This document shows, piece after piece, positions 4,488 to 19,093 of a DNA stretch of 20,177 nucleotides (positions are counted from its first letter, which is position 1; every line of letters begins with the position of its first letter). The position numbers were made by a program, and so were the translations under genes. The notes beneath the pieces were generated by a model, which was not told the origin of the DNA, searched no databases, and saw nothing but the letters and a program-made list of their open reading frames with translations. This stretch comes from a virus: IMG/VR virus record IMGVR_UViG_3300025325_000167, positions 1 to 20,177 of that record; one strand, written 5' to 3'.

Positions 4488-5282
4488 TCAGGCCCCGCCG
4501 CGCACTTGCTGAAGACGGTTGTACTCGGCCTCCGCACTGTCCACGGTGTACCGAGCCTCCCGCACGTCCGGCTTCTCAGCAAAGGCGTCGAGGACTGAGG
4601 GTTCTGCGTTTCTGAGCGGAAACGGCTGGGTCGCAAACTTCGCTCGCTCCGCTGTCAGTTTTTCGTTGACCAGCTTGTCGATCCGCGCGGACTCATCCTT
4701 GTCACGCTTCTCGGTGATCTTGGTCTGGAACTTCGTGTGGTAGGCATCGAGCAGGCCGTACACGCTTCCGTCCGGTTTCTGCTTACCCAAGTTGCGATCC
4801 TGAAGCAGCTCACGTGTGTCGATCACTTCACCAAAATCCTGAAAGTGCTTGAGCGTGAGCGAATTTTGGAGACCGAGGTAGTTCGCCGCCGCTCTCTCGC
4901 GCTCTTCCATGAACGAGGCCAACTCCTCTTTGCTGACACCTGGGGGAGCAGACTCCACCTTGGGCGGTGTTCCGCCTTTGGCCTTGATCTCGTTGTACTC
5001 CTTGATCGCGGCCTCGTTCTTGGCCCACCACGCGGTGTTCTGCTGGTAGAGATCCTGGGCCTTGGCCACCTCGTCGTCGAGCTCCTGCTCTCTGGTGCGA
5101 ATCTCGTCCATCTGCTTGCTGAACTCGCTCTGGGCGAGCCCACGCGCACCAAGCTCGGTGATCGCGTCAGCGGCCTCCGGAGCCGAGAACACCTCAGACA
5201 TCTTGGTCCTCAAGCTCTCGGGGAGCTTGGCGAGTACCAAGTCTGCCAAGGATTTACCTGCGTCGAATGCTTTCCCTGCCAT
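4488..5282 (-). CDS. Probable capsid scaffolding protein, 264 aa
   Basis: The ATG at 5282 has a near-ideal AGGAGGAATC ribosome site. The protein is highly charged, Glu/Lys-rich and almost entirely helical; residues about 50-95 (QSEFSKQMDEIRTREQEL onward) look like a coiled coil, as do about 120-145. It ends with a basic helix (EYNRLQQVRGG), as scaffolds often do to contact the capsid shell. Located immediately upstream of the probable capsid gene, the normal place for a scaffold. No protease motif is seen, so it is likely a pure scaffold. Assignment rests on composition and order. Confidence 0.6.
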   Translation of the reverse strand: MAGKAFDAGKSLADLVLAKLPESLRTKMSEVFSAPEAADAITELGARGLAQSEFSKQMDEIRTREQELDDEVAKAQDLYQQNTAWWAKNEAAIKEYNEIKAKGGTPPKVESAPPGVSKEELASFMEERERAAANYLGLQNSLTLKHFQDFGEVIDTRELLQDRNLGKQKPDGSVYGLLDAYHTKFQTKITEKRDKDESARIDKLVNEKLTAERAKFATQPFPLRNAEPSVLDAFAEKPDVREARYTVDSAEAEYNRLQQVRGGA

Positions 5283-5290
5283 GATTCCTC

Positions 5291-5371
5291 CTACACGACG
5301 CGAGTACCTGCGATCGCGTGGACCACACCAGTACCTGTCGAGCAGCTACGTGACTGCCGTAAGACCTTCAT
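5291..5371 (-). CDS. Possible micro-protein, 26 aa
   Basis: The ATG at 5371 overlaps the TGA of the preceding gene (TGATG), and AGGAACAGTCTG gives a Shine-Dalgarno-like AGGA at normal spacing. The frame reads MKVLRQSRSCSTGTGVVHA and stops at 5291, just before the scaffold ribosome site. It exactly fills what would otherwise be an 80-base gap. Small, basic then hydrophobic, no family known. Coding is plausible from the junctions but unproven. Confidence 0.3.
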   Translation of the reverse strand: MKVLRQSRSCSTGTGVVHAIAGTRVV

Positions 5372-5742
5372 CAGACTGTTCCTGCACCTGCGACTCCACG
5401 GTCAAACGCCGCCGGGAATTGCCGCCCCACGGCCGTCGAACTCATCGCGCCAGCGCCGGACTGCACGAGTTGGGCGAGCACCTGTGCCAACTGATCTTTG
5501 ATCGCCGAGAATTGCATCGCGAGATCAGGGGCGACTTGGGCGTAACTGTCCAAGAGCTCACCGATCTTTTGAGAACTTTGGAGAATGCCTGTGAGAATCT
5601 CCGGGGGCATCTGGTGCGACGGGAGCCCAGGCGCCATCGCCGAGAGGCTGAAGGGTGATGGAGCCCCCATCGGACCTGCCCCAGCCATCTGCGGCGAGGG
5701 CGGCGGGCCGTCAAGTTGCGAGGCGGCTTGAGGGAAGGCCAT
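5371..5742 (-). CDS. Pro/Ala-rich head-region protein, 123 aa
   Basis: The ATG at 5742 follows directly on the previous TAG (5743-5745). The first 45 residues are Pro/Ser/Gly/Met-rich and disordered (GPPPSPQMAGAGPMGAPSP); residues about 48-92 form an amphipathic helical region (ILTGILQSSQKIGELLDSY, FSAIKDQLAQVLAQLVQSG). Such proteins are commonly found between portal and scaffold genes in phages and may act in head assembly; here that is inferred from position. Stop overlaps the small downstream ORF. Confidence 0.6.
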   Translation of the reverse strand: MAFPQAASQLDGPPPSPQMAGAGPMGAPSPFSLSAMAPGLPSHQMPPEILTGILQSSQKIGELLDSYAQVAPDLAMQFSAIKDQLAQVLAQLVQSGAGAMSSTAVGRQFPAAFDRGVAGAGTV

Positions 5743-5919
5743 CTACCGAGACCTCGATACGGTGCGTTCACGCACAAAGGCCGCACCCTTCTTCATCGTG
5801 CCCACTAGATCGCGCCGAGGCGAGGAGAGGCGAATGTCGGTGGACCGGGCACCCTTGATCCCACCTCGCCGTTTGGCACGCGCGAGGGCACCGCGTTCAC
5901 GCAGCGGGGCTTCAGCCAT
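5743..5919 (-). CDS. Small basic phage protein, 58 aa
   Basis: The ATG at 5919 overlaps the upstream TAA (TAATG) and its own TAG is followed at once by the next ATG. The peptide starts MAEAPLRERGALARAKRRGG and is Arg/Lys-rich throughout with little hydrophobic core, suggesting nucleic-acid or acidic-protein binding. It is the third of three consecutive tiny basic proteins (55, 59, 58 aa) between portal and scaffold. A reading extended to 6390 in the same frame is rejected because it would run over both neighbours and the terminator. Function unknown. Confidence 0.55.
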   Translation of the reverse strand: MAEAPLRERGALARAKRRGGIKGARSTDIRLSSPRRDLVGTMKKGAAFVRERTVSRSR

Positions 5920-6098
5920 TAGCGTTTCCCCTGGAGCATCGATCGCTGCACGAGGCTCATGGATTTGGTCATCTTCCGGTGCTGCCGCTTCACGCCCACC
6001 ATCCGCTTCCGATCGGTCATGACCTCGGCGGCGCGGGTGATCGTGCGGTGATCGTCTTCCTCTTGGTAGCGATCCATCGAGGGAGACTTGGGACTCAT
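5919..6098 (-). CDS. Small basic Met-rich phage protein, 59 aa
   Basis: The ATG at 6098 overlaps the upstream TGA (ATGA). The N-terminus is MSPKSPSMDRYQEEDDHRTI, then a basic Met-rich helix (MTDRKRMVGVKRQHRKMTK) and MSLVQRSMLQGKR. An upstream start at 6143 would lie inside the preceding gene and is less likely. Possibly DNA- or capsid-associated on charge grounds; no recognised family. Confidence 0.55.
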   Translation of the reverse strand: MSPKSPSMDRYQEEDDHRTITRAAEVMTDRKRMVGVKRQHRKMTKSMSLVQRSMLQGKR

Positions 6099-6262
6099 CG
6101 CTTCCCTCGCATCGACCGGCCCTTCGCCGACTTGCCATGCCACTTCCGCGATCCGGGCTTGCCTTTGTTAATCGAGGCGTAGAACACGCTCTTCCCCTTC
6201 TTCGCTCCGTAGGACTTCTGCATCGAGGACAGCACCTTGGAGCCAGACTCGGTGATCGGCAT
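6095..6262 (-). CDS. Small basic phage protein of a widespread 'MPIT...KSYGAKKGKSVFYAS' type, 55 aa
   Basis: Starts MPITESGSKVLSSMQKSYG and continues GAKKGKSVFYASINKGKPG; small phage proteins with this layout (short helix, 'YG.KKG..VFYAS.NKG') are common in tailed phages near structural genes, function unknown. The start codon is abnormal in context: the 9-T tract of an intrinsic terminator ends two bases before the ATG, and no Shine-Dalgarno lies at normal spacing (the nearest, GGGGAGG, is in the 3' arm of the terminator hairpin). The family N-terminus argues that the ATG is nevertheless correct. Confidence 0.7.
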   Translation of the reverse strand: MPITESGSKVLSSMQKSYGAKKGKSVFYASINKGKPGSRKWHGKSAKGRSMRGKR

Positions 6263-6264
6263 AC

Positions 6265-6307
6265 AAAAAAAAAGGCCCGACCTCCCCACTCGGAGAAGAT
6301 CGGGCCT
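6265..6307 (-). terminator. Rho-independent terminator inside the late operon
   Basis: On the minus strand the arms AGGCCCGA (6307-6300) and TCGGGCCT (6280-6273) are perfect complements; inner bases (CTTCTCC / GGGGAGG) extend the stem with several G-T pairs around a GAGT loop. A run of nine T follows. Stem, GC content and T-run fit a strong intrinsic terminator for leftward transcription. On the other strand there is no T-run, so it is one-directional. Confidence 0.85.
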
Positions 6308-6328
6308 GAACGGTACTGCTCGTGAGAG

Positions 6329-6550
6329 CTAGGCGTTCGTCGGCGCGAGCAAATCCTTGACAGCCTGCACGAAATCTGAGCGGTTGTCAACGGTCAAGCG
6401 AATCTGCACGGTCTGCATCTCGACGACCTTGGGAATCCCGGACTGGAAATGGAGCCAGATCCCGCCGGTGAAGCGGCGATCATAGAGGGCAGAGAGGAGG
6501 GTACACAGATCGGCGTCGTGCTCGGTGACTACGGGTAGGTCAACTCCCAT
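6329..6550 (-). CDS. Hypothetical phage protein, 73 aa
   Basis: The ATG at 6550 has GGGAG eight bases upstream and overlaps the end of the previous gene by 11 bases; a GTG at 6574 is a less likely start. The sequence MGVDLPVVTEHDADLCTLLS followed by a beta-helix pattern (GGIWLHFQSGIPKVVEMQT, VQAVKDLLA) suggests one small globular domain. It is the last gene before the terminator. Unknown function. Confidence 0.6.
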   Translation of the reverse strand: MGVDLPVVTEHDADLCTLLSALYDRRFTGGIWLHFQSGIPKVVEMQTVQIRLTVDNRSDFVQAVKDLLAPTNA

Positions 6551-6773
6551 CACCAGTCTCCCGTACCAGATCACTGAAGGCGTCTGCGAAGGTCATTCCC
6601 ATGCCCAGGTGCCCGTCAGTGGTTTTCACATAGTGCGTCGGCGTCGGGAGATCTTTGTAGGCGCGCTCGAATGCGACGCGGATCTGCGTATCACGGTCGG
6701 ACTCCAGGAAGGCGCGAACCGCCTTGATCCACGCGAGCGATCCCATGAATACCGTCGGGCCGAGCTCGCTCAT
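6540..6773 (-). CDS. Hypothetical phage protein, 77 aa
   Basis: The ATG at 6773 overlaps the portal stop (ATGA), so it is probably translated with the portal. It begins MSELGPTVFMGSLAWIKAVR, with a helix rich in aromatic and charged residues, and ends TFADAFSDLVRETGDGS. No motif recognised. Its position immediately after the portal suggests a head-assembly role, but that is guesswork. Confidence 0.55.
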   Translation of the reverse strand: MSELGPTVFMGSLAWIKAVRAFLESDRDTQIRVAFERAYKDLPTPTHYVKTTDGHLGMGMTFADAFSDLVRETGDGS

Positions 6774-8899
6774 TTTGAAGATTCCGTGATCGTCGTCCGT
6801 CCCCCCGGCTCATCGCCCTTTGATTCCATCTTTGGCGCTTCCTGCCCACTCGCTTTGCGTCCGGCGCTGTTGGCGACCTGGCCAATACCCATGAGGTTCT
6901 GAGCGACCAACCGCTCCGTGATGGTCTGCGGCACGCGAACCTCCAGCAGTTGCCCGGATGCTGGATCGAAGGTATAGGACTTCCCATCTGGCGCTTGGAG
7001 CGGTGCGTTCACGAGCCCCCCCTGCGCATTCAGCATGAGTTGTTGCACAAGGGCCGCTTGCACCTCTGGAGGAATCGGTTCCAGCGGTGGCAGAGGAATA
7101 GCCGGGGGCGCACCCACGTTCGGGGTTTCCATCGTCTCGTGGTAACTCCAGAAATCGCGGAGTCCCGAGCGGACTTCCTGCATCGCGATCATGCGCCGAT
7201 CCGCCCCGTTGATCGCGAGGATCGAGTTGGGCGCGACCGTGAAAATAAACTGGTTGTGGAAGTACTGGGCTCGCTGATCTCTGGTGGTGAGATCGGGATC
7301 CAGTTCCGGGGTGTAGCCAGCCATGTGCGGCTTGACCGCCGGGACCAGCGTGTCCGGGTCGTAATCAATGTCCGCTAGTGTCGAGGCGCTCTCGCCCAGC
7401 AGCGCAATAAATTGTTTGGTCGTGCGAAATTGGAAGTAGTTCGGTTTGATCAGATCGGCCAGATCGCGCATGAACCCTTCGACCTGCCGGGCTTCATAGC
7501 GGATCTCAGGCGTGAGGGCTTCATAGTACTTCTGGATCGTGTCCGCGGAGGGCATCTGGCGAAGCTGCATGAGTGCGGACAAGTTGGCTGTGCCGCTCAT
7601 GTCCGCGAACTTCTGCGTGAGCCGATCCCACAACTCCAAGCCCAGGGACATGATTTGCGCGTTCGGCCCATCGAGCTTCTTGTACGGATCGCCAAAGCTG
7701 GGATTGGTCTTGAGGCGCTTGCCAGGACGGCGGGTGTCGCTCACGCGCATGGTGGTTTCAGACACGGCGTTCCTGTTGAACACCACGTCCGGGTCCAGCC
7801 ACTGCATCAGCGCCAAGCGCATGTCATTCGCCGTCTCGTTGATCGCGTCCTGGATTGGACAGAGGTCGTTCATCAGCGGGATGCCCAGCAGTTGCCAGGG
7901 GACCGACCAGAGACGCAGGCGGCAGACGGGATAGCGCGCGTGCCAGTAGGTGTTCGGGCCATCGTAGACGACTGCGTCGTCTGTTGCGACTACGAGTCGC
8001 CCGCGGGGATACAACGGTTCGTTCGGCTGGGCGACGTATTGCCACGCTGAGCCAGGCGTGCCCATCACGATCCCACGATCGGTGAGGTTGCGCGTGCGGT
8101 CGCGGAGGTAGGCGCGATAGAGCACGATCTGGCCCGAGCGGGACTTGCGCGTATGCGTGCCCGTCTGTCCTAACCCCGCAAGGGGATCGGCCGGGGTGAT
8201 CAGTCTGGCCGCCATCGTGCGGAACTTGCCCATCACCCGGCCCAACTGATTGTCGCTGGCTGGCCGAAAGAGCGCAGCCTTGGTGGGGTACATGCCTCGG
8301 AGCGCATTGACCGAGTGTTCCTCGCGCAGGACGACTCCTTCCCACAACTGGACTGATCGACCTTGTGAGGGTCTGATCGGCAGAGTATCTCTGGGATCAC
8401 GCGCCGAGTAGCTATTCGCTCCACCGAAGGGCGCATGCGGGTCCCAGTCCACCACTAAGTCCCCAGTCCCACAGGTGAGCGCGTACTTCACACACTCACC
8501 CAGCTCGATGTCGGCCATCGTCATGACCCACTCGGCGATCGCAAGGCGGTTGAGGAGATCGGCCTGACGCTGGAACAGATCGGGGTTGGTGGGCCGCCAG
8601 CCGAACACGGGTTTGAGATCGGTCAGGGCCGAGACGTGGGCTTGGACCGCCTTGCGCGTCTCGTTGATCACGACTTGGGGGAGGTACTTCAGACGCTGGC
8701 GCTCAGGACTCAGTTGTTCGCCGACGAGGTAGAGCTGGGAGCGTTCGATCACGTCGTAGGAGGGATCGGCGCGGTTGATGCGGTCGCCTTCTTCAATCGC
8801 TTCCTGGAGCCAGCCGAGCACACGGGGATCGCCCTTGGCCAGGGTGTCGGCGGTGGTACGGGGTAAATCTCGAATGCCCGCGATGGAGAACTCTGGCAT
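6770..8899 (-). CDS. Portal protein, 709 aa
   Basis: The dodecameric portal forms the DNA entry vertex, to which terminase and neck proteins dock. At 709 residues it has the size of the large P22-like portals. Visible: N-terminal helical region (GDPRVLGWLQEAIEEGDR, YDVIERSQLYLVGEQL), a core with RKAVQAHVSALTDLKPVFG and MTMADIELGECVKYALTCG, a stem/wing-like beta region with PRGRLVVATDDAVVYDG, RYPVCRLRLWSVPWQLLG and PLMNDLCPIQDAINETAND (the 'pi.d....n...d.r..' pattern typical of portals), and a Gln/Pro-rich tail. The ATG at 8899 has GGAGAAG upstream. It follows terminase and accessory genes and precedes scaffold and capsid, the usual order. Confidence 0.8.
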   Translation of the reverse strand: MPEFSIAGIRDLPRTTADTLAKGDPRVLGWLQEAIEEGDRINRADPSYDVIERSQLYLVGEQLSPERQRLKYLPQVVINETRKAVQAHVSALTDLKPVFGWRPTNPDLFQRQADLLNRLAIAEWVMTMADIELGECVKYALTCGTGDLVVDWDPHAPFGGANSYSARDPRDTLPIRPSQGRSVQLWEGVVLREEHSVNALRGMYPTKAALFRPASDNQLGRVMGKFRTMAARLITPADPLAGLGQTGTHTRKSRSGQIVLYRAYLRDRTRNLTDRGIVMGTPGSAWQYVAQPNEPLYPRGRLVVATDDAVVYDGPNTYWHARYPVCRLRLWSVPWQLLGIPLMNDLCPIQDAINETANDMRLALMQWLDPDVVFNRNAVSETTMRVSDTRRPGKRLKTNPSFGDPYKKLDGPNAQIMSLGLELWDRLTQKFADMSGTANLSALMQLRQMPSADTIQKYYEALTPEIRYEARQVEGFMRDLADLIKPNYFQFRTTKQFIALLGESASTLADIDYDPDTLVPAVKPHMAGYTPELDPDLTTRDQRAQYFHNQFIFTVAPNSILAINGADRRMIAMQEVRSGLRDFWSYHETMETPNVGAPPAIPLPPLEPIPPEVQAALVQQLMLNAQGGLVNAPLQAPDGKSYTFDPASGQLLEVRVPQTITERLVAQNLMGIGQVANSAGRKASGQEAPKMESKGDEPGGRTTITESSK

Positions 8900-9517: not shown

Positions 9518-9999
9518 CCTCGATCCTTCAGCGCGCTCGTGTTCGACTCATTGACCCCCGGCCCAAACACCACCTCGGGCGCGTCAGCCGATTTCCTGAG
9601 TGTGGCGCCAAATCGCGCCGCCGCTTCCTTTGTCGGAGCCTGCTGCGGGTTCTCACCAAGGGTGTGGACGTGCACATTCGAGCGATCCTGAGAATATCTC
9701 CGCCAGACCATCGGCTGACCTTCCCCATTGCGCGCCATCTGCTCGGACTCGCGCTCGACCTGGCGCATCTTGCGCAGCGAATCGACGAGGACCGGGCGGT
9801 TACGGCCATCGGACACCGTGAACTCTTGGAAGGGCTCCTTGGCGTCGATGAACTGCACGAACGGGATCCAGGCCATTCGCTGAGAGAACCCAGAGCAACG
9901 ACAGATCGGCGGATCGGCTTGCGCACCCACGCTGATCGGGCGGTAGACATCGCGTGCGATCTGTCCGCACGACTCACACCAGAAGTCGAACAGGGGCAC
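9514..9999 (-). CDS. FmdB-like zinc-ribbon phage protein, 161 aa
   Basis: A GTG at 9999 follows the previous TAG by one base, with GAGGA about ten bases upstream; a longer reading would run through the whole upstream gene. The N-terminus MPLFDFWCESCGQIARDV with C8, C11 and C33, C35 (ICRCSG) forms a zinc ribbon of the FmdB-like type. The rest is charged and helical (DSLRKMRQVERESEQMARN, PTKEAAARFGATLRKSADA). Probably a structural or DNA/protein-contact domain; specific job unknown. Confidence 0.6.
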   Translation of the reverse strand: MPLFDFWCESCGQIARDVYRPISVGAQADPPICRCSGFSQRMAWIPFVQFIDAKEPFQEFTVSDGRNRPVLVDSLRKMRQVERESEQMARNGEGQPMVWRRYSQDRSNVHVHTLGENPQQAPTKEAAARFGATLRKSADAPEVVFGPGVNESNTSALKDRG

Positions 10000-10648: not shown

Positions 10649-12917
10649 TCACTCGTGGGACCGAGGGTCGAAGTAGAGGGCGTCGGGTCCCCAGTCGTCG
10701 TCGGCGTCATCATCGATCCCTTGCTTGGCTCCTTCGGCGCTGGTGGCCGAGTTGCGCCAGTCGCGACGGAGTCCACTTCCACGCGAAGCTTCGAGGGCAC
10801 GGGTCGCCTCCCTGCGATGGCGGCGCTCGCTGATCGGTTCGATCTCACCGCCCATCTGCATATAGCATACGAAGTGTCCGATGGCCGCGCTCATCACACA
10901 GTCGTCATGATGACCTGGAGCGGCTTCGGCGTCGCCTAGTCTAGCACCAGGGACCTTGGGGATGATCAAATGGCGCAACTCTGATCGGGAGATTGGGCTA
11001 TGGAGACGGAGATCGAGGACGTGCGAGAACGGATCTTGCGTCGTGAGGGCTTCGTAGAGCCTGGCGAGAATGATGGGTCTGGTTTGCTTGGTCGTCGCCC
11101 AGCCAATCCGTTTCGTGAAGCGCCCACTGGGATCACCCGCATCCAAGACTTCCCAGACGTAGAAGTTGGAGTAGCCCAGATGCAGTTGGAGTTCGTGCTG
11201 CACGACGAGTCCCGGTCCTAAGTTAGCCTCGACAGCGGCTAACGCCTCGATCCCATCAGTATCGAGGTAGTAGCGGCCGATGGCGTCACAGATCCGCGCG
11301 ATCTCGACCGGGCGATGGACGTTGGACACGAACTGCGCGACTTGCTCGGTCGGTTCTTCCACCGTGGGCATCCGGAAGATATCGATGACCGAGAAGTCCA
11401 GCCCCACGCCGTCCCCGACATCGACTGGCATCACGTACGACCGCACGCCCAGACGGCGGGGATATTCGTAGATGAGGAGCACCCCGGCTTCGCGCAGCCC
11501 TTCCACCCCTTCGATGTCCTTGAGTGCCTCGACTCCCAAGCGCCGGAAGCCGTAGCCAGGCGGCACCTCCACGGTCTCGGCGAGGGCGCGAGGCAACCGA
11601 GGGGCGAGTGGGGCGGGCAGACGATGATCGGGCTTCAGTTCCTCGGGTGCGAGGCGGCGAAGTTCCGCGATATCTCTCGAGGGCTCGACCGCCCAGACAT
11701 CGATCAGGGGCTTGGCTTGCTGATCGATCAGTTGGAGCTGTTCGATGTCGAAGACGCCGTGGCCCGCGTACTGGAAGCATTCGTTAGGGTCGCTAGGGGT
11801 ACTCCTTCAAGAACGCGCTGAGCTTGTTCTTCGCCTCGTAAAAGGCTCTCGTCGTTTCGTACCAGTACTGCTGCGCGAGCGTAGGATGAATCGTCTGGCC
11901 CAGGCACCACTGCGGCGATTCACGCTCGGCCTTCTCCACCCACGCTTTGGTCGTCTCGAGCGGTTCCCACCGATCGGGGGGCGCGAGCGAATATTTACTC
12001 GGCACGGCGTAGGCGGCGATGAACAGATTCCGAAACCGCCCGACCGTGCGCGCAGAGGCTTGCCAGTGCTTGTGCCACCAGTCATCCGAGAGTTCAGCCG
12101 TAGACTCCAGGAGGCCCAACGTATCACGGTAGACAGGAATGCCAGGCAGCAACGCCGAGTCAAGCTGATCGGGGTTGTCCCACGTCGCCAACTCCGAGAT
12201 ATGGAAGGTGCTGTAGGTCCGGCCCCGCTCGATGTTGCCCTTCTTTCCGCCCACTTCTTGCAGCGCACCACGGGTGGACTTACCCCATGCGGTACGCAGC
12301 TCTGAGCCGGTGGCCAGCATCAGCTCTCTATTTTTGTTGTAGCCGGTCTGATCGGGCGCGAGCCACCAGGGGAGATGGCGGAAGAGGCGCTCGGCGATGC
12401 GGAAGAGGTAGCCGGCTTGGGATTCGATATCCGATCCCACCAGCGCGCGGATGTAGGGTTGGGTGAAGATGCGGTGGCAGACCAGTGCGACGCCAAGGGT
12501 GGTGATCCCGACTTGACGGATCTTCAGGATGTTCAGCAGCAGCCCATCGGGGGAGCGTTCCTCGACCCGTTGTACCTCCAAGCGTGCGAGGCGGTCGAGC
12601 ATGAACTGTTGGCTCTCCCAGAGCGGGTAGATCGGGATGAGCCCATGCCCCTCCTGATCGATCATGCAGTAGCGTTCAAGGAAGTGGACCGCGTCGATCT
12701 GGCAGAGCAGCCCTTCGCCGTAGACGAAGCGTTTCTCCTCGTTGATGAGCGGACGGGGCTCATCACCCAGTCGATCGGTCCACGCTCGGCAGTCCGCGAC
12801 CGAATAGCGCGGCAGGCGACGATCAGGGAAGACGAGCTGAGGCTGGAGCACCCCGGCCGGCGGAGACTGGAGAAAGAGCGCGCGCTCGCGGCGGGCGACG
12901 ATCTCGGGGGAGTACAT
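10649..12917 (-). CDS. terL: Terminase large subunit, two frames joined by a +1 shift, about 755 aa
   Basis: The packaging motor and headful/cos nuclease. The first frame (12917 to 11796, 374 aa) holds the ATPase: Walker A-like KIRQVGITT (132-140), a Walker B-like segment STFHISELATW (about 236-246) and LLESTAEL (coupling motif, about 269-276). The second frame (11794 to 10649, 381 aa) holds the RNase H-like nuclease: VDVGDGVGLDFSV, GLVVQHELQLHLGYSN and GHHDDCVMSAA supply the acidic residues. The first frame stops at TAG 11793-11795; skipping one base at CCC-T joins FLKEYP to SDPNECFQYAGHGVFDIE, a conserved terminase stretch. The second frame has no plausible start of its own near the junction. 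The start ATG lies after a 28-base repeat-rich gap. A long acidic tail follows the nuclease (DDDADDDWG). Confidence 0.85.
11792..11807 (-). other. Candidate programmed +1 ribosomal frameshift site in terL
   Basis: Minus strand, codons: AAG GAG TAC CCC TAG C. AAGGAG is a Shine-Dalgarno-like hexamer placed one codon (TAC) before the slippery CCC codon, with UAG next and C after it. The prfB +1 site has the same order: AGG GGG UAU CUU UGA C. The P-site tRNA-Pro can re-pair from CCC to CCU; the next codon becomes AGC and the conserved terminase frame continues. A single extra C in the CCCC run would give the same sequence, so sequencing or assembly error must be ruled out. Confidence 0.6.
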
Positions 12918-12948
12918 ACGCCTGTACTACTGTACTCGTGTACTCCTA
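12918..12948 (-). repeat. Tandem 8-bp GTAC-containing repeats before terL
   Basis: On the minus strand the gap between the holin-like stop and the terL ATG reads GAGTACAC, GAGTACAG, TAGTACAG, then GCGT before ATG. GTAC recurs at exactly 8-base spacing (12943-12940, 12935-12932, 12927-12924). AGG in the last unit is the only weak ribosome site for terL. Short regular repeats beside terminase genes can be terminase recognition sites, but nothing here proves that. Confidence 0.5.
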
Positions 12949-13134
12949 CTCGTCGCGGAACAGGCTCGCCGGCCCTTTCGTGATGAAGCGCAGCGCAATA
13001 TTCGCTCCAGCGACGATCGGCACCGCCGCTTCGGCTGGGATCAGGATCCCAAACTGTCCGCTGCTCACGGCGACCGTCGCGAGGAGCACATTGCTCCAGA
13101 ATACCTTACTCTTGAAAATGGATTTTGCTGGCAC
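12946..13134 (-). CDS. Two-helix holin-like membrane protein, 62 aa
   Basis: The GTG at 13134 sits six bases after GGAGG, which is embedded in the last codons of the homing endonuclease gene; the longer reading to 13182 lacks this site. The peptide MPAKSIFKSKVFWSNVLLA has a basic start, a hydrophobic segment (about 12-28), a Pro-marked turn with LIPAEAA, a second hydrophobic segment (about 35-50, AVPIVAGANIALRF) and a charged tail. Small phage membrane proteins with 'K..SKVFW.N' starts occur in lysis cassettes. Two membrane segments resemble class II holins; an unrelated membrane protein remains possible. Confidence 0.55.
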   Translation of the reverse strand: MPAKSIFKSKVFWSNVLLATVAVSSGQFGILIPAEAAVPIVAGANIALRFITKGPASLFRDE

Positions 13135-13136
13135 GT

Positions 13137-13649
13137 TCAGCCTCCATAGTTGAATCGCTTCACGGCTCGAAGCTCTCGACAATCACGCTGTAAAAGATCC
13201 CACGCCTCAGTCGGCATTCGCTTATGAAAGAATTCAGCCTTCAAGTGAACAAGGCGCTTGAACAACTCAAAATCACGAGCCTTCCTAGTCCGTAGGGGGA
13301 ACTGTTCAAAGAGTGGAATGATCACAGATTGAAGTTCACCGATCTTGTTTACAACAAAACGCGCCATCGGATTAGCGGTTCCGTTCTTCAGATTCTCCTC
13401 AACACGTCCAACTTTCAAAGTTCTGTGAATCAGCCGAAGAATCTCAACATCGTCTGTCCGTAACTGCACTTTGAATAGAAAGAGCATCGACGCACGTACT
13501 TGGGACTTGTTATTCCAGTACACGGAGAAGCACCCTTCTCCATCGGCAAAGCCCGCGAACCACTGTCCAAAGCCAACAGGAATAGGCGGAAATGGATAAG
13601 ACAACTTTCGCTTAGTCAGCGTCCCTCCTGTTGGTGCGCTTGACTCCAC
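13137..13649 (-). CDS. Free-standing LAGLIDADG homing endonuclease, about 160-170 aa
   Basis: WFAGFADGEGCFSVYW (about residues 30-45 from the GTG at 13649) is a clear LAGLIDADG motif with its catalytic acidic residue, followed by the expected alpha/beta body (FKVQLRTDDVEILRLIHRT, VGRVEENLKNG, RFVVNKIGELQSVIIPLFE, KARDFELFKRLVHLKAEFF). One motif means it should act as a homodimer that cuts a long site and spreads its own gene. The start is uncertain: GTG 13649 overlaps the upstream gene, whereas CTG at about 13618 follows GGAGG closely. By eye it is clearly poorer in G+C than its neighbours (about half against well over 60%), a sign of recent arrival. It sits between two lysis-type membrane genes. 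Confidence 0.85.
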   Translation of the reverse strand: MESSAPTGGTLTKRKLSYPFPPIPVGFGQWFAGFADGEGCFSVYWNNKSQVRASMLFLFKVQLRTDDVEILRLIHRTLKVGRVEENLKNGTANPMARFVVNKIGELQSVIIPLFEQFPLRTRKARDFELFKRLVHLKAEFFHKRMPTEAWDLLQRDCRELRAVKRFNYGG

Positions 13650-13816
13650 AAGATGAAGTGTCGATTGATGGCGCGCAGATCCTGGCTGACCAGATCGAGC
13701 TGCTTGCTCTGCGTCTCGATCCGCTCGGTCAAGGCGCCCATCCGTACGCCGAAGCCAAAGATGACCCCGAACAGACTCAACAGGAGACCCAGGATGGCGA
13801 TCTGCTCTTTGGTCAT
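13616..13816 (-). CDS. Single-pass membrane protein with coiled tail (holin/spanin-like), 66 aa
   Basis: The ATG at 13816 gives MTKEQIAILGLLLSLFGVIF, a membrane helix at about 7-25, then a coiled-coil-type helix (MGALTERIETQSKQLDLVS, about 27-55) and a charged end (HQQEGR). This layout resembles XhlA-like or i-spanin-like lysis helpers. A GTG at 13846 is an alternative start with no good ribosome site; AGGAG lies 17 bases before the ATG, with a hairpin between. Position between endolysin and holin-like genes supports a lysis role. Confidence 0.55.
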   Translation of the reverse strand: MTKEQIAILGLLLSLFGVIFGFGVRMGALTERIETQSKQLDLVSQDLRAINRHFILWSQAHQQEGR

Positions 13817-13840
13817 AGAGAAGTGCCAGTCTCTCCTGGC
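13817..13840 (-). promoter_or_regulatory. Hairpin-structured ribosome binding site
   Basis: On the minus strand GCCAG-GAGAGA-CTGGC (13840-13825) forms a perfect 5-bp hairpin that holds the Shine-Dalgarno AGGAGA partly in its stem and loop. It is followed by ACTTCTCT (13824-13817), partly complementary to GGAGAGA, and then the ATG at 13816. Alternative pairings could hide or present the site for the membrane protein gene. Confidence 0.35.
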
Positions 13841-13842
13841 TG

Positions 13843-13979
13843 TCACGGCCCGCGGCGTTTAACGTGTGCCGTTACGTGATTTCTCTCCGCCGCAGAGGGC
13901 GCCACACTACCCCGGAACTTTCGCGGCGCGTCGGGTCACTTGCCTATCCGGGACCGATAATTCGAGAACTCCAACCTCC
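13843..13979 (-). other. Gap between lysis genes with a UGA-interrupted reading frame
   Basis: About 135 bases without a normal gene. A strong GGAGG site follows the upstream TAA at once, and TTG at 13974 begins LEFSNYRSRIGK, which ends at TGA (13938-13936). The same frame then stays open for 30 more codons (PDAPRKFRGSVAPSAAERN and on, basic) to TGA at 13845-13843. It could be a decayed small gene, an unrecognised structured RNA leader, or chance. Confidence 0.3.
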
Positions 13980-14549
13980 TTAGTGGGTCGCTGGCAGCCC
14001 TAGCGCCTGTCTCCACTCGGCGCGATGTTTCGTGATTGACTGCTCCAGTGTGAGGACGTGCCCAGTGGCGTCGCCCGCGACCGCGTCCCAGATCGTGCGG
14101 CCGAACCAGCGGCCCATCCCCGCATCAGGCGGATGGGAGGCGGCGGCGTAGTCCCCAAAGAGGGCGATCCCGACTTGGTCCCAGATCATATCGCCGGGAT
14201 AGGGAATGGGGACAGGACCGGGCGCAGGCTCCTCCTCCCACGCGGCTGGAGGCTTTGGCTGGACCCAGCGATCCGGATCGATCGGCGCTTTCCCATCGCC
14301 CCAGATCGGCCCGGAATCCGTCGCGATGTCCACGATCTCGCCCGTGCCCGCCCACAGGACCAGATCGGTGGACAGCCCCAAGACGTTTGAGCCGGTGAGT
14401 TTCTCGACCAGGCCCCAATGCGCATCGCGCTGAAAGAGCTTCCACGCCGCGGCGCGGGTGAAGGCGGCCTTGCCAGGATCGGTGTGGAGCGTCCAGCCCC
14501 CCTGATCGAACAGCGCCTTCACGGTGGAGAAATGATTGGGGACACTCAT
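13980..14549 (-). CDS. Phage hypothetical protein in lysis region, 189 aa
   Basis: The ATG at 14549 overlaps the endolysin stop (ATGA). N-terminal part: FSTVKALFDQGGWTLHTDP, LFQRDAHWGLVEKLTGSN, LSTDLVLWAGTGEIVDIAT. A Pro-rich linker (about 95-115) separates this from a C-terminal part with MGRWFGRTIWDAVAG and LEQSITKHRAEWRQALGL. Proteins with this two-part layout are found next to endolysins in uncultured phages; the first half may be a wall- or virion-associated domain. No catalytic motif that I can name. Confidence 0.55.
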   Translation of the reverse strand: MSVPNHFSTVKALFDQGGWTLHTDPGKAAFTRAAAWKLFQRDAHWGLVEKLTGSNVLGLSTDLVLWAGTGEIVDIATDSGPIWGDGKAPIDPDRWVQPKPPAAWEEEPAPGPVPIPYPGDMIWDQVGIALFGDYAAASHPPDAGMGRWFGRTIWDAVAGDATGHVLTLEQSITKHRAEWRQALGLPATH

Positions 14550-14974
14550 CCGAGCCTCCGTACTCCAAGCACGCGTGCGATCGGGAATGTGTCGATCGTC
14601 ACCCCGTTGGATTGATTGCCGCCGCAGACGAGGATACGCCCAGTCTCGGCGCCCGCATAGAGGCCCACGTGCCCTTGAGCGGGATTGAGGCCACGACTGA
14701 GGATCACCACGTCGTACTCCGCTCGCGCCAAACTGCTCTCGACGGCGGTGCCAATCCCGAGCCAGGACCTCGCCGCAAGGGATTTACTGCGCGGCAACCG
14801 CTGCACCCACGCGAGCCGGCTCACAAACGCCGAGCACCACGCGATCTCGTCATGGGGCTGATCGGTGATAGGGTGGCAGGCTTCCAGACACCAGAGGATG
14901 AAGGGGTGATCGGCGGCGCCGGGGCGCTCCTCTATCTCGCCGACGAAGCGCATGGCCAGCTGGAGGAGGGTCAT
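14546..14974 (-). CDS. Endolysin, TIGR02594-like cysteine peptidase (NlpC/P60-CHAP type), 142 aa
   Basis: Cuts peptidoglycan stem or cross-bridge peptides at lysis. The catalytic Cys is C47 in DEIAWCSAFV, the His H102 in GHVGLYAG, and the polar third residue probably N120 in CGGNQSNGVTI. AARSWLGIG, YDVVILSRG and the ending ARVLGVRRLG complete the pattern of the TIGR02594 family. Length is normal for a single-domain enzyme; there is no signal peptide or wall-binding domain, so it relies on a holin. The ATG at 14974 overlaps the stop of the preceding membrane gene. Confidence 0.8.
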   Translation of the reverse strand: MTLLQLAMRFVGEIEERPGAADHPFILWCLEACHPITDQPHDEIAWCSAFVSRLAWVQRLPRSKSLAARSWLGIGTAVESSLARAEYDVVILSRGLNPAQGHVGLYAGAETGRILVCGGNQSNGVTIDTFPIARVLGVRRLG

Positions 14975-15204
14975 CCACGCGACTCATGATCGTGCTTCAT
15001 CTGATCTTGGAGCGAGCGGACGACTTCGGTGTTCGCGGTGATGGCGATGCTGTTGTCCTTCACGACCTGCATCAGGGCATCCGATTGTCCACGCCACAAC
15101 TCGGTGTAGAGCTTCACGTCCTTGCGATAGAAATGGAACATGAAGGCGGCGAGCACGCCCCCGACGCCAAGGGTGGCGAGCCACTGGGCGAACTCAGTGT
15201 CCAT
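14971..15204 (-). CDS. Small single-pass membrane protein (holin/spanin-like), 77 aa
   Basis: The ATG at 15204 gives MDTEFAQWLATLGVGGVLA with a membrane helix at about 8-26 and then a charged helical tail (ELWRGQSDALMQVVKDNSI, EVVRSLQDQMKHDHESRG). The reading up to 15369 lies inside the previous gene and is rejected. Placed directly before the endolysin, it is a good holin or inner-membrane spanin candidate. Its tail resembles that of the membrane protein at 13616-13816. Confidence 0.6.
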   Translation of the reverse strand: MDTEFAQWLATLGVGGVLAAFMFHFYRKDVKLYTELWRGQSDALMQVVKDNSIAITANTEVVRSLQDQMKHDHESRG

Positions 15205-15853
15205 CAGGCTCTCGCGGACCAGGTTCAACCGCCGAGGGGCTGAACACGATCTTGGCGGCATCCGCTTGCAGCTTCGCCAAGGACGCGCCCAGGCCCACGT
15301 GCAGCGTCTTGGTCTCCTGGACGTTTTCGTTGTGAATGTTGAGGCCAGCCTTCTGCACCAGTTCGCCAAGCTCCAGCGCCAGCTTTTGTTGATCGAGACT
15401 GGGCTCCTGGTTGATCCAGCCGCCCTCGCACCACGGACACTCGGTGACGATCACCTCACCCTTCACCCGTGTCTTCATGTGTGTCGTGCCGTTACACTCC
15501 AGGCAGAGGACTTTGTGGGTACGAGCGCGGCGCATGGCATCGGCGGCGACGTAGGGGAGCTCACGCGCCACTGGAATCGACGCAAGGACCTTCGCCCGGG
15601 TCTTGAGTGCCCGCTCGTAGGCGAGGAACAGATCGCCGGGCGTACAGTCGGCCATCAGACAGACCGTACTGAGCGTGTTCCGGCGGTGATCGGGGTTGCC
15701 GAGGAAGCTCAGGATCCGCTGAATGGTCTCGGAGGAGTCCGCCTGGGCGAGCACTTCGACGAGGACTTCGCGTCCGCCCAGTTGCTGCTCGAAGCTCTCC
15801 ACCGCGTAGCTGAGGATCGGAAGGACGGGACGGGGAGTAAGGGCGGTGCTCAT
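15194..15853 (-). CDS. DnaJ-type zinc-finger phage protein, possible small terminase, 219 aa
   Basis: The ATG at 15853 overlaps the upstream stop (ATGA). Residues 1-110 are helical (SSETIQRILSFLGNPDHRR, TPGDLFLAYERALKTRAKV), compatible with a helix-turn-helix region. C117/C120 (VLCLECNG) and C139/C142 (TECPWCEGG) form a CxxCxG pair like that of DnaJ. After it comes PSLDQQKLALELGELVQKA and an end with LGASLAKLQADAAKIVFSP. Proteins with this order occur upstream of large terminases in uncultured phages; I infer a DNA-binding or TerS-like role, unproven. Confidence 0.5.
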   Translation of the reverse strand: MSTALTPRPVLPILSYAVESFEQQLGGREVLVEVLAQADSSETIQRILSFLGNPDHRRNTLSTVCLMADCTPGDLFLAYERALKTRAKVLASIPVARELPYVAADAMRRARTHKVLCLECNGTTHMKTRVKGEVIVTECPWCEGGWINQEPSLDQQKLALELGELVQKAGLNIHNENVQETKTLHVGLGASLAKLQADAAKIVFSPSAVEPGPREPDGH

Positions 15854-16146
15854 GCGCTCCCATTCCACTCAGATTGAAACCGTGGATCACGTGCTCGCTC
15901 GTACCGCATCGCAGAGGGCAACCGCTGACGCCGCGCTCGCGCCGCGAGGATCTGTCGTTGCTGCCAGAGGTGATCCTCTGTGATCCCGGTGACACGGATG
16001 GACGCGGGTCCGTAAATCTGCAACCAACCCGGCATTCGACAGAGGCCACGAGGCTGCCCCTCTCTCATCACCAGCTCACCTCGACGGGCGTTTCCAGTCT
16101 CGGTTCGCACGGTGAGCCGCCCCATCCCATCGCGCCACGGTGTCAT
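15850..16146 (-). CDS. Hypothetical Arg-rich phage protein, 98 aa
   Basis: The ATG at 16146 overlaps the upstream TGA (TGATG); a GTG three bases earlier is equally placed behind AAGGAG. Sequence: MTPWRDGMGRLTVRTETG, RGELVMREGQPRGLCRMPG, then TGITEDHLWQQRQILAARA with a basic helix (ARRQRLPSAMRYERARD). Basic and possibly nucleic-acid binding. No family recognised. Confidence 0.5.
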   Translation of the reverse strand: MTPWRDGMGRLTVRTETGNARRGELVMREGQPRGLCRMPGWLQIYGPASIRVTGITEDHLWQQRQILAARARRQRLPSAMRYERARDPRFQSEWNGSA

Positions 16147-18701: not shown

Positions 18702-18751
18702 CTTGCGGCTGGGACGGATTACATTTGGCGACTAAACGGAAAGAACAGACC

Positions 18752-19093
18752 ATGAGAAAACCCAGCTACGCCCTACTCGAATCCCACGCGAGTCAGCTCC
18801 AGCATGATCTATGGTTGACACAGATCGCCTTGCAGTGTGTCCAAAACGAGCAGCCAGTCGCGAGCGAAACCATGAGAGAGGATTCCGGGCCTGCACGGTA
18901 CCGATTCGACCTCTATCGGCCTGAGAGCGCACACGGGGGGATCTTAGTGATCACGTTCAGGCTCAACGGTCAGTCGAACAGTACGACCGCACACTATTTT
19001 GAGCAGTATCGGCTCATGCCGTCCCTGGCGAGGTTCGAGCGGATCGCCTGTGAACGGTTAGCTATCAAACGGTTTGCTAGGGTGCCAGCATGA
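18752..19093 (+). CDS. Hypothetical early phage protein, 113 aa
   Basis: The ATG at 18752 has GGAAAG upstream; a TTG at 18725 is a weaker alternative. A helical N-terminus (YALLESHASQLQHDLWLTQ) is followed by a beta-like body (RYRFDLYRPESAHGGILVI) and a helical, basic end (SLARFERIACERLAIKRFA). No known family. Stop overlaps the next ATG. Confidence 0.5.
   Translation: MRKPSYALLESHASQLQHDLWLTQIALQCVQNEQPVASETMREDSGPARYRFDLYRPESAHGGILVITFRLNGQSNSTTAHYFEQYRLMPSLARFERIACERLAIKRFARVPA

What the first reader, a model, noticed from the sequence alone, without database searches (positions are those of the whole stretch)
11765..11830. prfB-like programmed +1 frameshift splitting the terminase ATPase and nuclease domains
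Sequence on the minus strand: AAG GAG TAC CCC TAG C. This matches the prfB site codon for codon in layout (AGG GGG UAU CUU UGA C): internal Shine-Dalgarno hexamer, one spacer codon, slippery codon that can re-pair after +1, stop, C. The +1 product runs FLKEYP directly into SDPNECFQYAGHGVFDIE, which is collinear with terminases, and the nuclease half has no start of its own at that boundary. I know of no described +1 recoding in a large terminase. It could set how much full-length motor is made, or leave a free ATPase fragment of 374 aa.
Basis: partly seen in the sequence, partly recalled or inferred. Interest (0 to 1): 0.93.

Follow-up and report, generated by a model that had tools for sequence, protein, structure and literature searches.

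The report
Frameshifted phage terminase gene, probably recoded
In one phage lineage the gene for the DNA-packaging motor is cut by a single extra base exactly where a bacterial ribosome is prone to skip one base, so the phage probably still makes the whole protein by a ribosomal frameshift; but none of its relatives has the interruption, so it looks like a tolerated mutation at a lucky spot and not an old regulatory device.

Summary
On the minus strand the 374-aa TerL ATPase frame ends AAG GAG TAC CCC TAG C. The +1 frame continues the protein without losing a residue (FLKEYP|SDPNECFQYAG), and the shift must fall within four codons. A second assembly (IMGVR_UViG_3300025313_000160; 16,234 bp overlap, 5 SNPs, no indels) carries the same site, so a consensus error is unlikely. 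All other window genes with relatives are in one frame, and the nuclease half is as conserved as the ATPase half.

TerL is uninterrupted in all 22 distinct related junctions (31 loci). The 'Shine-Dalgarno' hexamer is simply the codons for conserved Lys-Glu: 14 of 22 intact junctions have AAGGAG, and L068 has the whole AAGGAGTACCCCT in frame. Only the one-base gain that creates TAG is specific to this phage. A random insertion gives this layout about 5e-6 to 5e-5 of the time, so chance alone is a poor account.

Best reading: a lineage-specific indel at a pre-existing shift-prone site, survived by +1 slippage of tRNA-Pro on CCC_UAG ('corrective' recoding). A conserved, regulated prfB-like programme is not supported. 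Precedents: Listeria phage CCC_UGA +1 shifts, and proposed bypassing in Streptomyces phage Hau3 TerL.

The parts
11793..12917 (-). TerL ATPase half, zero frame, 374 aa, MYSPEIV...FLKEYP*
   Evidence: ORF; phrog_5989 terminase large subunit E 6e-11; collinear with intact relatives; fold of relative L068 matches T4 gp17 ATPase
10649..11794 (-). TerL nuclease half, +1 frame, 381 aa, SDPNECF...DPRSHE*
   Evidence: phrog_24361 terminase; family profile matches RB49/T4 gp17 nuclease; 88 of 94 residues invariant in relatives kept
11802..11807 (-). AAGGAG, Shine-Dalgarno-like hexamer, also codons Lys-Glu of the conserved FLKEYP motif
   Evidence: sequence; duplex with anti-SD -8.3 kcal/mol; also present in 14 of 22 intact related junctions
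11796..11798 (-). CCC, slippery proline codon, re-pairs as CCU after +1
   Evidence: sequence; CCC_stop +1 sites in Listeria phages and E. coli (PMC5009743)
11793..11795 (-). TAG stop followed by C; created by the one-base gain
   Evidence: sequence; absent from all relatives
11807..11809 (-). TGA in the +1 frame, upstream limit of the frame overlap
   Evidence: six-frame translation
13137..13649 (-). LAGLIDADG homing endonuclease gene, lineage-specific, upstream of terL (possible but unshown link)
   Evidence: PF00961 E 4e-17; no homologue in relatives' loci

Best explanation
A lineage-specific single-nucleotide gain broke the terL frame at the Pro-Ser junction at the end of the ATPase domain. 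It landed just 3' of a coding sequence, AAG GAG UAC CCC, that by descent already resembles a +1 frameshift stimulator plus slippery codon. Ribosomes translating terL pause at UAG-C with peptidyl-tRNA-Pro on CCC. The anti-SD of 16S rRNA pairs with AAGGAG three bases upstream, tRNA-Pro re-pairs +1 on CCU, and translation continues as AGC GAC..., giving a 755-aa full-length TerL beside a 374-aa ATPase-only fragment. This is 'corrective' recoding that keeps an essential gene working, not an old regulatory switch. Shown here: sequence layout, collinearity, presence in two assemblies, intactness of the other conserved genes, absence from relatives, and ancestral origin of the SD-like codons. Inferred: that slippage really occurs in the host, its efficiency, and that enough full-length motor is made.
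For: Layout and four-codon overlap; only CCC can re-pair there. Perfect collinearity with intact relatives. Same junction in a second assembly with 5 SNPs and no indels over 16,234 bp. Every other conserved window gene is in one frame against syntenic relatives, so this is not a decayed phage. The nuclease half is as conserved as the ATPase half (0.527 vs 0.528 mean identity; 88/94 vs 81/92 invariant residues kept). Start sites of this phage use strong SDs, AGGAGG or AGGAG, so the host ribosome uses the anti-SD. Random insertion rarely gives the layout. No alternative start for the nuclease half near the break. Precedent: Listeria phage tsh (AAA)CCC_UGA +1 shifts, and 3-nt SD spacing for +1 (PMC5009743); tRNA-Pro is shift-prone on CC[C/U]-[C/U] (PMC4519876); CCC is among the next most slippery codons before a stop after CUU (PMC10274946).
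Against: No conservation: 22 of 22 distinct related junctions are in frame, and no other phage in the collection has the motif interrupted this way. No expression data. The SD duplex is weaker than that of prfB (-8.3 vs -10.7 kcal/mol) and one base closer to the P site in anti-SD register. UAG is not found as the prfB stop (PMC12421855). No stimulatory structure downstream. The two assemblies may share a sample.
Confidence: 0.57

Rival explanations
1. Plain inactivating frameshift in a defective or dying variant of the phage; the prfB-like look is coincidence, helped by the Lys-Glu-Tyr-Pro codons that pre-exist.
For: Absent from all relatives; SD hexamer explained by codons (14 of 18 Lys-Glu junctions AAGGAG, 10.1 expected from codon usage); L068 carries AAGGAGTACCCCT in frame.
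Against: Allele is the consensus in two assemblies; no other broken conserved gene; no decay downstream; chance of this layout about 5e-6 to 5e-5 per insertion.
Confidence: 0.2
2. Evolved, regulated prfB-like +1 programme that sets a ratio of ATPase fragment to full-length motor.
For: Codon-for-codon layout of prfB; truncated product would be an almost complete ATPase domain.
Against: No conservation in 22 related junctions; SD-like hexamer predates the break; RF1 stop, weaker duplex, no other stimulator.
Confidence: 0.1
3. Two separate proteins: ATPase fragment plus a nuclease started on its own, working as a split TerL.
For: An unrelated contig, L034, has TerL ATPase and nuclease halves in separate ORFs about 1.3 kb apart, the nuclease with its own ATG.
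Against: First start in this nuclease frame is TTG 11596, 66 codons past the break, with no SD visible upstream; the frames are exactly one base apart inside a conserved motif, not at a gene boundary.
Confidence: 0.06
4. Sequencing or assembly error at the short C run.
For: A single base accounts for the break.
Against: Two assemblies with different ends and 5 SNPs agree, with no indel between them over 16 kb; other conserved genes are in frame.
Confidence: 0.05

Closest known systems
Bacterial prfB (release factor 2) +1 programmed frameshift
   Same: SD-like hexamer, 3-nt spacer, slippery codon, stop, C in the same order and phase
   Different: CCC instead of CUU; UAG instead of UGA; AAGGAG one base off in anti-SD register and weaker; no conservation and no autoregulatory logic, as TerL is not a release factor
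Listeria phage PSA/A118/A500 tsh +1 frameshift at (AAA) CCC_UGA
   Same: +1 slip of tRNA-Pro on CCC before a stop in a phage structural-module gene (PMC5009743)
   Different: Different gene; there it is shared by three phages and yields two structural proteins; here one lineage only, with an SD-like sequence
Proposed bypassing in terL of Streptomyces phage Hau3
   Same: Recoding inside a large-terminase gene with an SD-like sequence 5' of the break (PMC5009743)
   Different: There a longer coding gap at a UUA codon; here a single-base +1 shift at a stop
'Corrective' frameshifting of problem indels (mainly mitochondria)
   Same: Indel at DNA level compensated by the ribosome (PMC5009743)
   Different: Here in a tailed-phage packaging gene, and only inferred
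T4 gp17 / RB49 gp17 large terminase
   Same: Same two-domain fold (L068 model: ATPase Z 21.8 to 2o0h, nuclease Z 17.3 to 3c6h)
   Different: Those are encoded in one frame

Membership tests
TerL (large terminase) | ATPase domain sequence or fold | tested here: met
   phrog_5989; relative L068's model matches T4 gp17 ATPase, Z 21.8, rmsd 3.0, 256 aligned
TerL (large terminase) | RNase-H-like nuclease domain with catalytic acids | tested here: met
   Family profile hits RB49 gp17 nuclease E 1e-7; window keeps the Asp of VDVGDG, CDAIG and HHDD
prfB-type programmed +1 frameshift | SD-like sequence 3 nt before slippery codon, then stop and C | tested here: met
   AAGGAG UAC CCC UAG C
prfB-type programmed +1 frameshift | CUU (or UUU) slippery codon and UGA (or UAA) stop | tested here: not met
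   CCC and UAG; prfB stops are UGA or UAA only (PMC12421855)
prfB-type programmed +1 frameshift | Conserved among orthologues | tested here: not met
   0 of 22 distinct related junctions
Functional +1 recoding site | Measured trans-frame product | not testable with these tools
   needs reporter assay or proteomics
Functional +1 recoding site | Downstream frame under purifying selection | tested here: inconclusive
   No decay of the nuclease half, but the break may be too young to leave a mark
Naturally split TerL (two genes) | Own start and ribosome site for the nuclease half | tested here: not met
   Nearest start TTG 11596, 66 codons downstream, no SD

The most novel reading that the evidence does not exclude
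The break is linked to the lineage-specific LAGLIDADG endonuclease gene lying 1.3 kb upstream: a recoded terL allele that resists cleavage by the endonuclease yet still yields TerL by +1 slippage, similar in logic to the proposal for the T4 gene 60 bypass. Both endonuclease and break are found only in this lineage among the loci examined.
Probability: 0.05. Interest if true: 0.75.

Novelty: new variant of a known kind. Interest (0 to 1): 0.42.

Why it matters
If the slip works, it shows how a conserved protein motif (Lys-Glu-Tyr-Pro) can, through its ordinary codons, provide a ready-made frameshift signal that rescues an essential phage gene from an indel, and hints at how programmed sites begin. 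It also warns that frame-split terminases in metagenomic phages need not be dead.

Tried and rejected
Conserved programme: tested with 31 intact-frame loci (22 distinct junctions) and rejected. Stop-codon reassignment (TAG as sense): the zero frame meets TAA three codons after the TAG, so it does not restore the protein. Transcriptional slippage: no A or T run at the site. Intron: the halves join with no residue missing and only one extra base; no Rfam match in the window. Downstream pseudoknot or hairpin: z-scores -0.45 and 1.04. Recurrence in other phages: pattern scan found only this phage; the in-frame control pattern found just 6 contigs, all terminase-like, so the denominator is small. 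Prophage relatives: none found in genome contigs by TerL or portal. Pfam gave no hits for the TerL halves. Origin of the second assembly's sample (search for 3300025313) was not found in papers. The Devaraj-Fredrick and Sanders-Curran papers on SD spacing are not held.

Full report
The window is a 20,177-bp virus record. On the minus strand it holds a head and packaging module: portal, major-capsid-like protein and other genes shared with relatives, and terL. The reported junction is exactly as described: AAG GAG TAC CCC TAG C at 11807-11792. The zero frame gives 374 aa ending FLKEYP*. The +1 frame gives SDPNECFQYAG and 381 codons to 10649. The +1 frame is closed by a TGA at 11809-11807, so the shift must take place within AAG-GAG-TAC-CCC. 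Of these only CCC lets its tRNA re-pair in the +1 frame, as CCU.

TerL identity is firm although Pfam has no model that fits. PHROGs call both halves terminase. A profile of 16 intact relatives matches the RB49 and T4 gp17 nuclease chains. An AlphaFold2 model of relative L068 (mean pLDDT 67, 16 sequences, so moderate quality) aligns with the T4 gp17 ATPase over residues 1-334 (Z 21.8) and with the RB49 nuclease from residue 338 (Z 17.3). The break falls at L068 residue 326/327, in a loop about 11 residues before the start of the nuclease domain. The truncated product would therefore be nearly the whole ATPase domain.

An error is unlikely. IMGVR_UViG_3300025313_000160 overlaps 16,234 bp with 5 substitutions and no indels, has different ends and carries the same site. 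I could not learn whether both assemblies come from one sample. Against syntenic relatives every conserved window gene runs in one frame except terL. The nuclease half is as conserved as the ATPase half: mean identity to 16 relatives 0.527 against 0.528, invariant residues kept 88/94 against 81/92. So either the break is young or the downstream frame is still translated.

Conservation is the main test, and the site fails it. A portal-based search gave 45 related loci. Of 32 rows spanning the junction, all but this phage's own were uninterrupted, and they hold 22 distinct intact junctions. A tree puts the window on its own long branch (0.97 changes per site) beside L022 and L004, both intact. 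FLKEYP is a conserved protein motif and its Lys-Glu is encoded AAGGAG in 14 of the 22 intact junctions. Where Lys-Glu is present in 18 scored genes, 14 use AAGGAG and 10.1 are expected from codon usage. L068 even has AAGGAGTACCCCT in frame. The SD-like element is therefore ancestral coding sequence, and only the base gain that makes TAG is new.

Chance alone is nevertheless a poor account. Of 184,800 single insertions simulated in 21 intact relatives, one gave SD, spacer, re-pairing codon and stop. Of 101,844 in window and related genes, five did. The finding was also picked out by a reader looking for oddities, so these numbers overstate the evidence. Selection by survival fits well: among indels in an essential gene, those at a shift-prone site are the ones that can persist.

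Mechanism, inferred: peptidyl-tRNA-Pro on CCC, UAG-C waiting in the A site, anti-SD pairing with AAGGAG (-8.3 kcal/mol; -10.7 for a prfB-like site; register one base closer to the P site), slip to CCU, and continuation. No downstream structure helps. The phage's start sites use strong SDs, so the host ribosome has a working anti-SD. Literature support: Listeria phages shift +1 at (AAA)CCC_UGA, +1 shifts use a 3-nt SD spacing, and bypassing has been proposed for terL of phage Hau3 (PMC5009743); tRNA-Pro is shift-prone on such sequences (PMC4519876); CCC follows CUU in slipperiness before a stop (PMC10274946). prfB itself has UGA or UAA (PMC12421855).

Verdict: a real, well-placed one-base break in terL, probably bypassed by +1 slippage (0.57), and best described as corrective recoding in one lineage. 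A conserved regulatory programme is not supported. Lacking any expression evidence, the claim remains a prediction that a simple reporter assay would settle.

Noticed in passing
window 13137-13649 (-): Free-standing LAGLIDADG endonuclease gene (PF00961) just upstream of terL; no homologue in the related loci. The gene block 12946-15369 around it also gave no matches in relatives, where only a few hundred bases separate terL from the homologue of ORF 15194-15868.
   Followed up: partly
L048 about 1927-2682 (IMGVR_UViG_3300048080_000352): TerL of a relative appears to carry an in-frame intein with a LAGLIDADG-like stretch (FDGEGSHLKIG) near residue 83, inferred by eye from the translation.
   Followed up: no
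L034 about 5,100-8,000 (IMGVR_UViG_3300046533_001021): Unrelated TerL split into two ORFs: the ATPase half ends at QYMLESNT*, then about 1.3 kb with other small ORFs, then the nuclease half with its own ATG; no Rfam intron found.
   Followed up: partly
window 18744-18753: Three of the five differences from the second assembly lie within 10 bp; the others are at 9577 (silent) and 10668 (Asp to Ala, six residues from the TerL C-terminus).
   Followed up: no
window 14546-14974 (-): TIGR02594 / phrog_1259-like tail-lysozyme domain as a small separate gene, near a likely lysis cluster.
   Followed up: no
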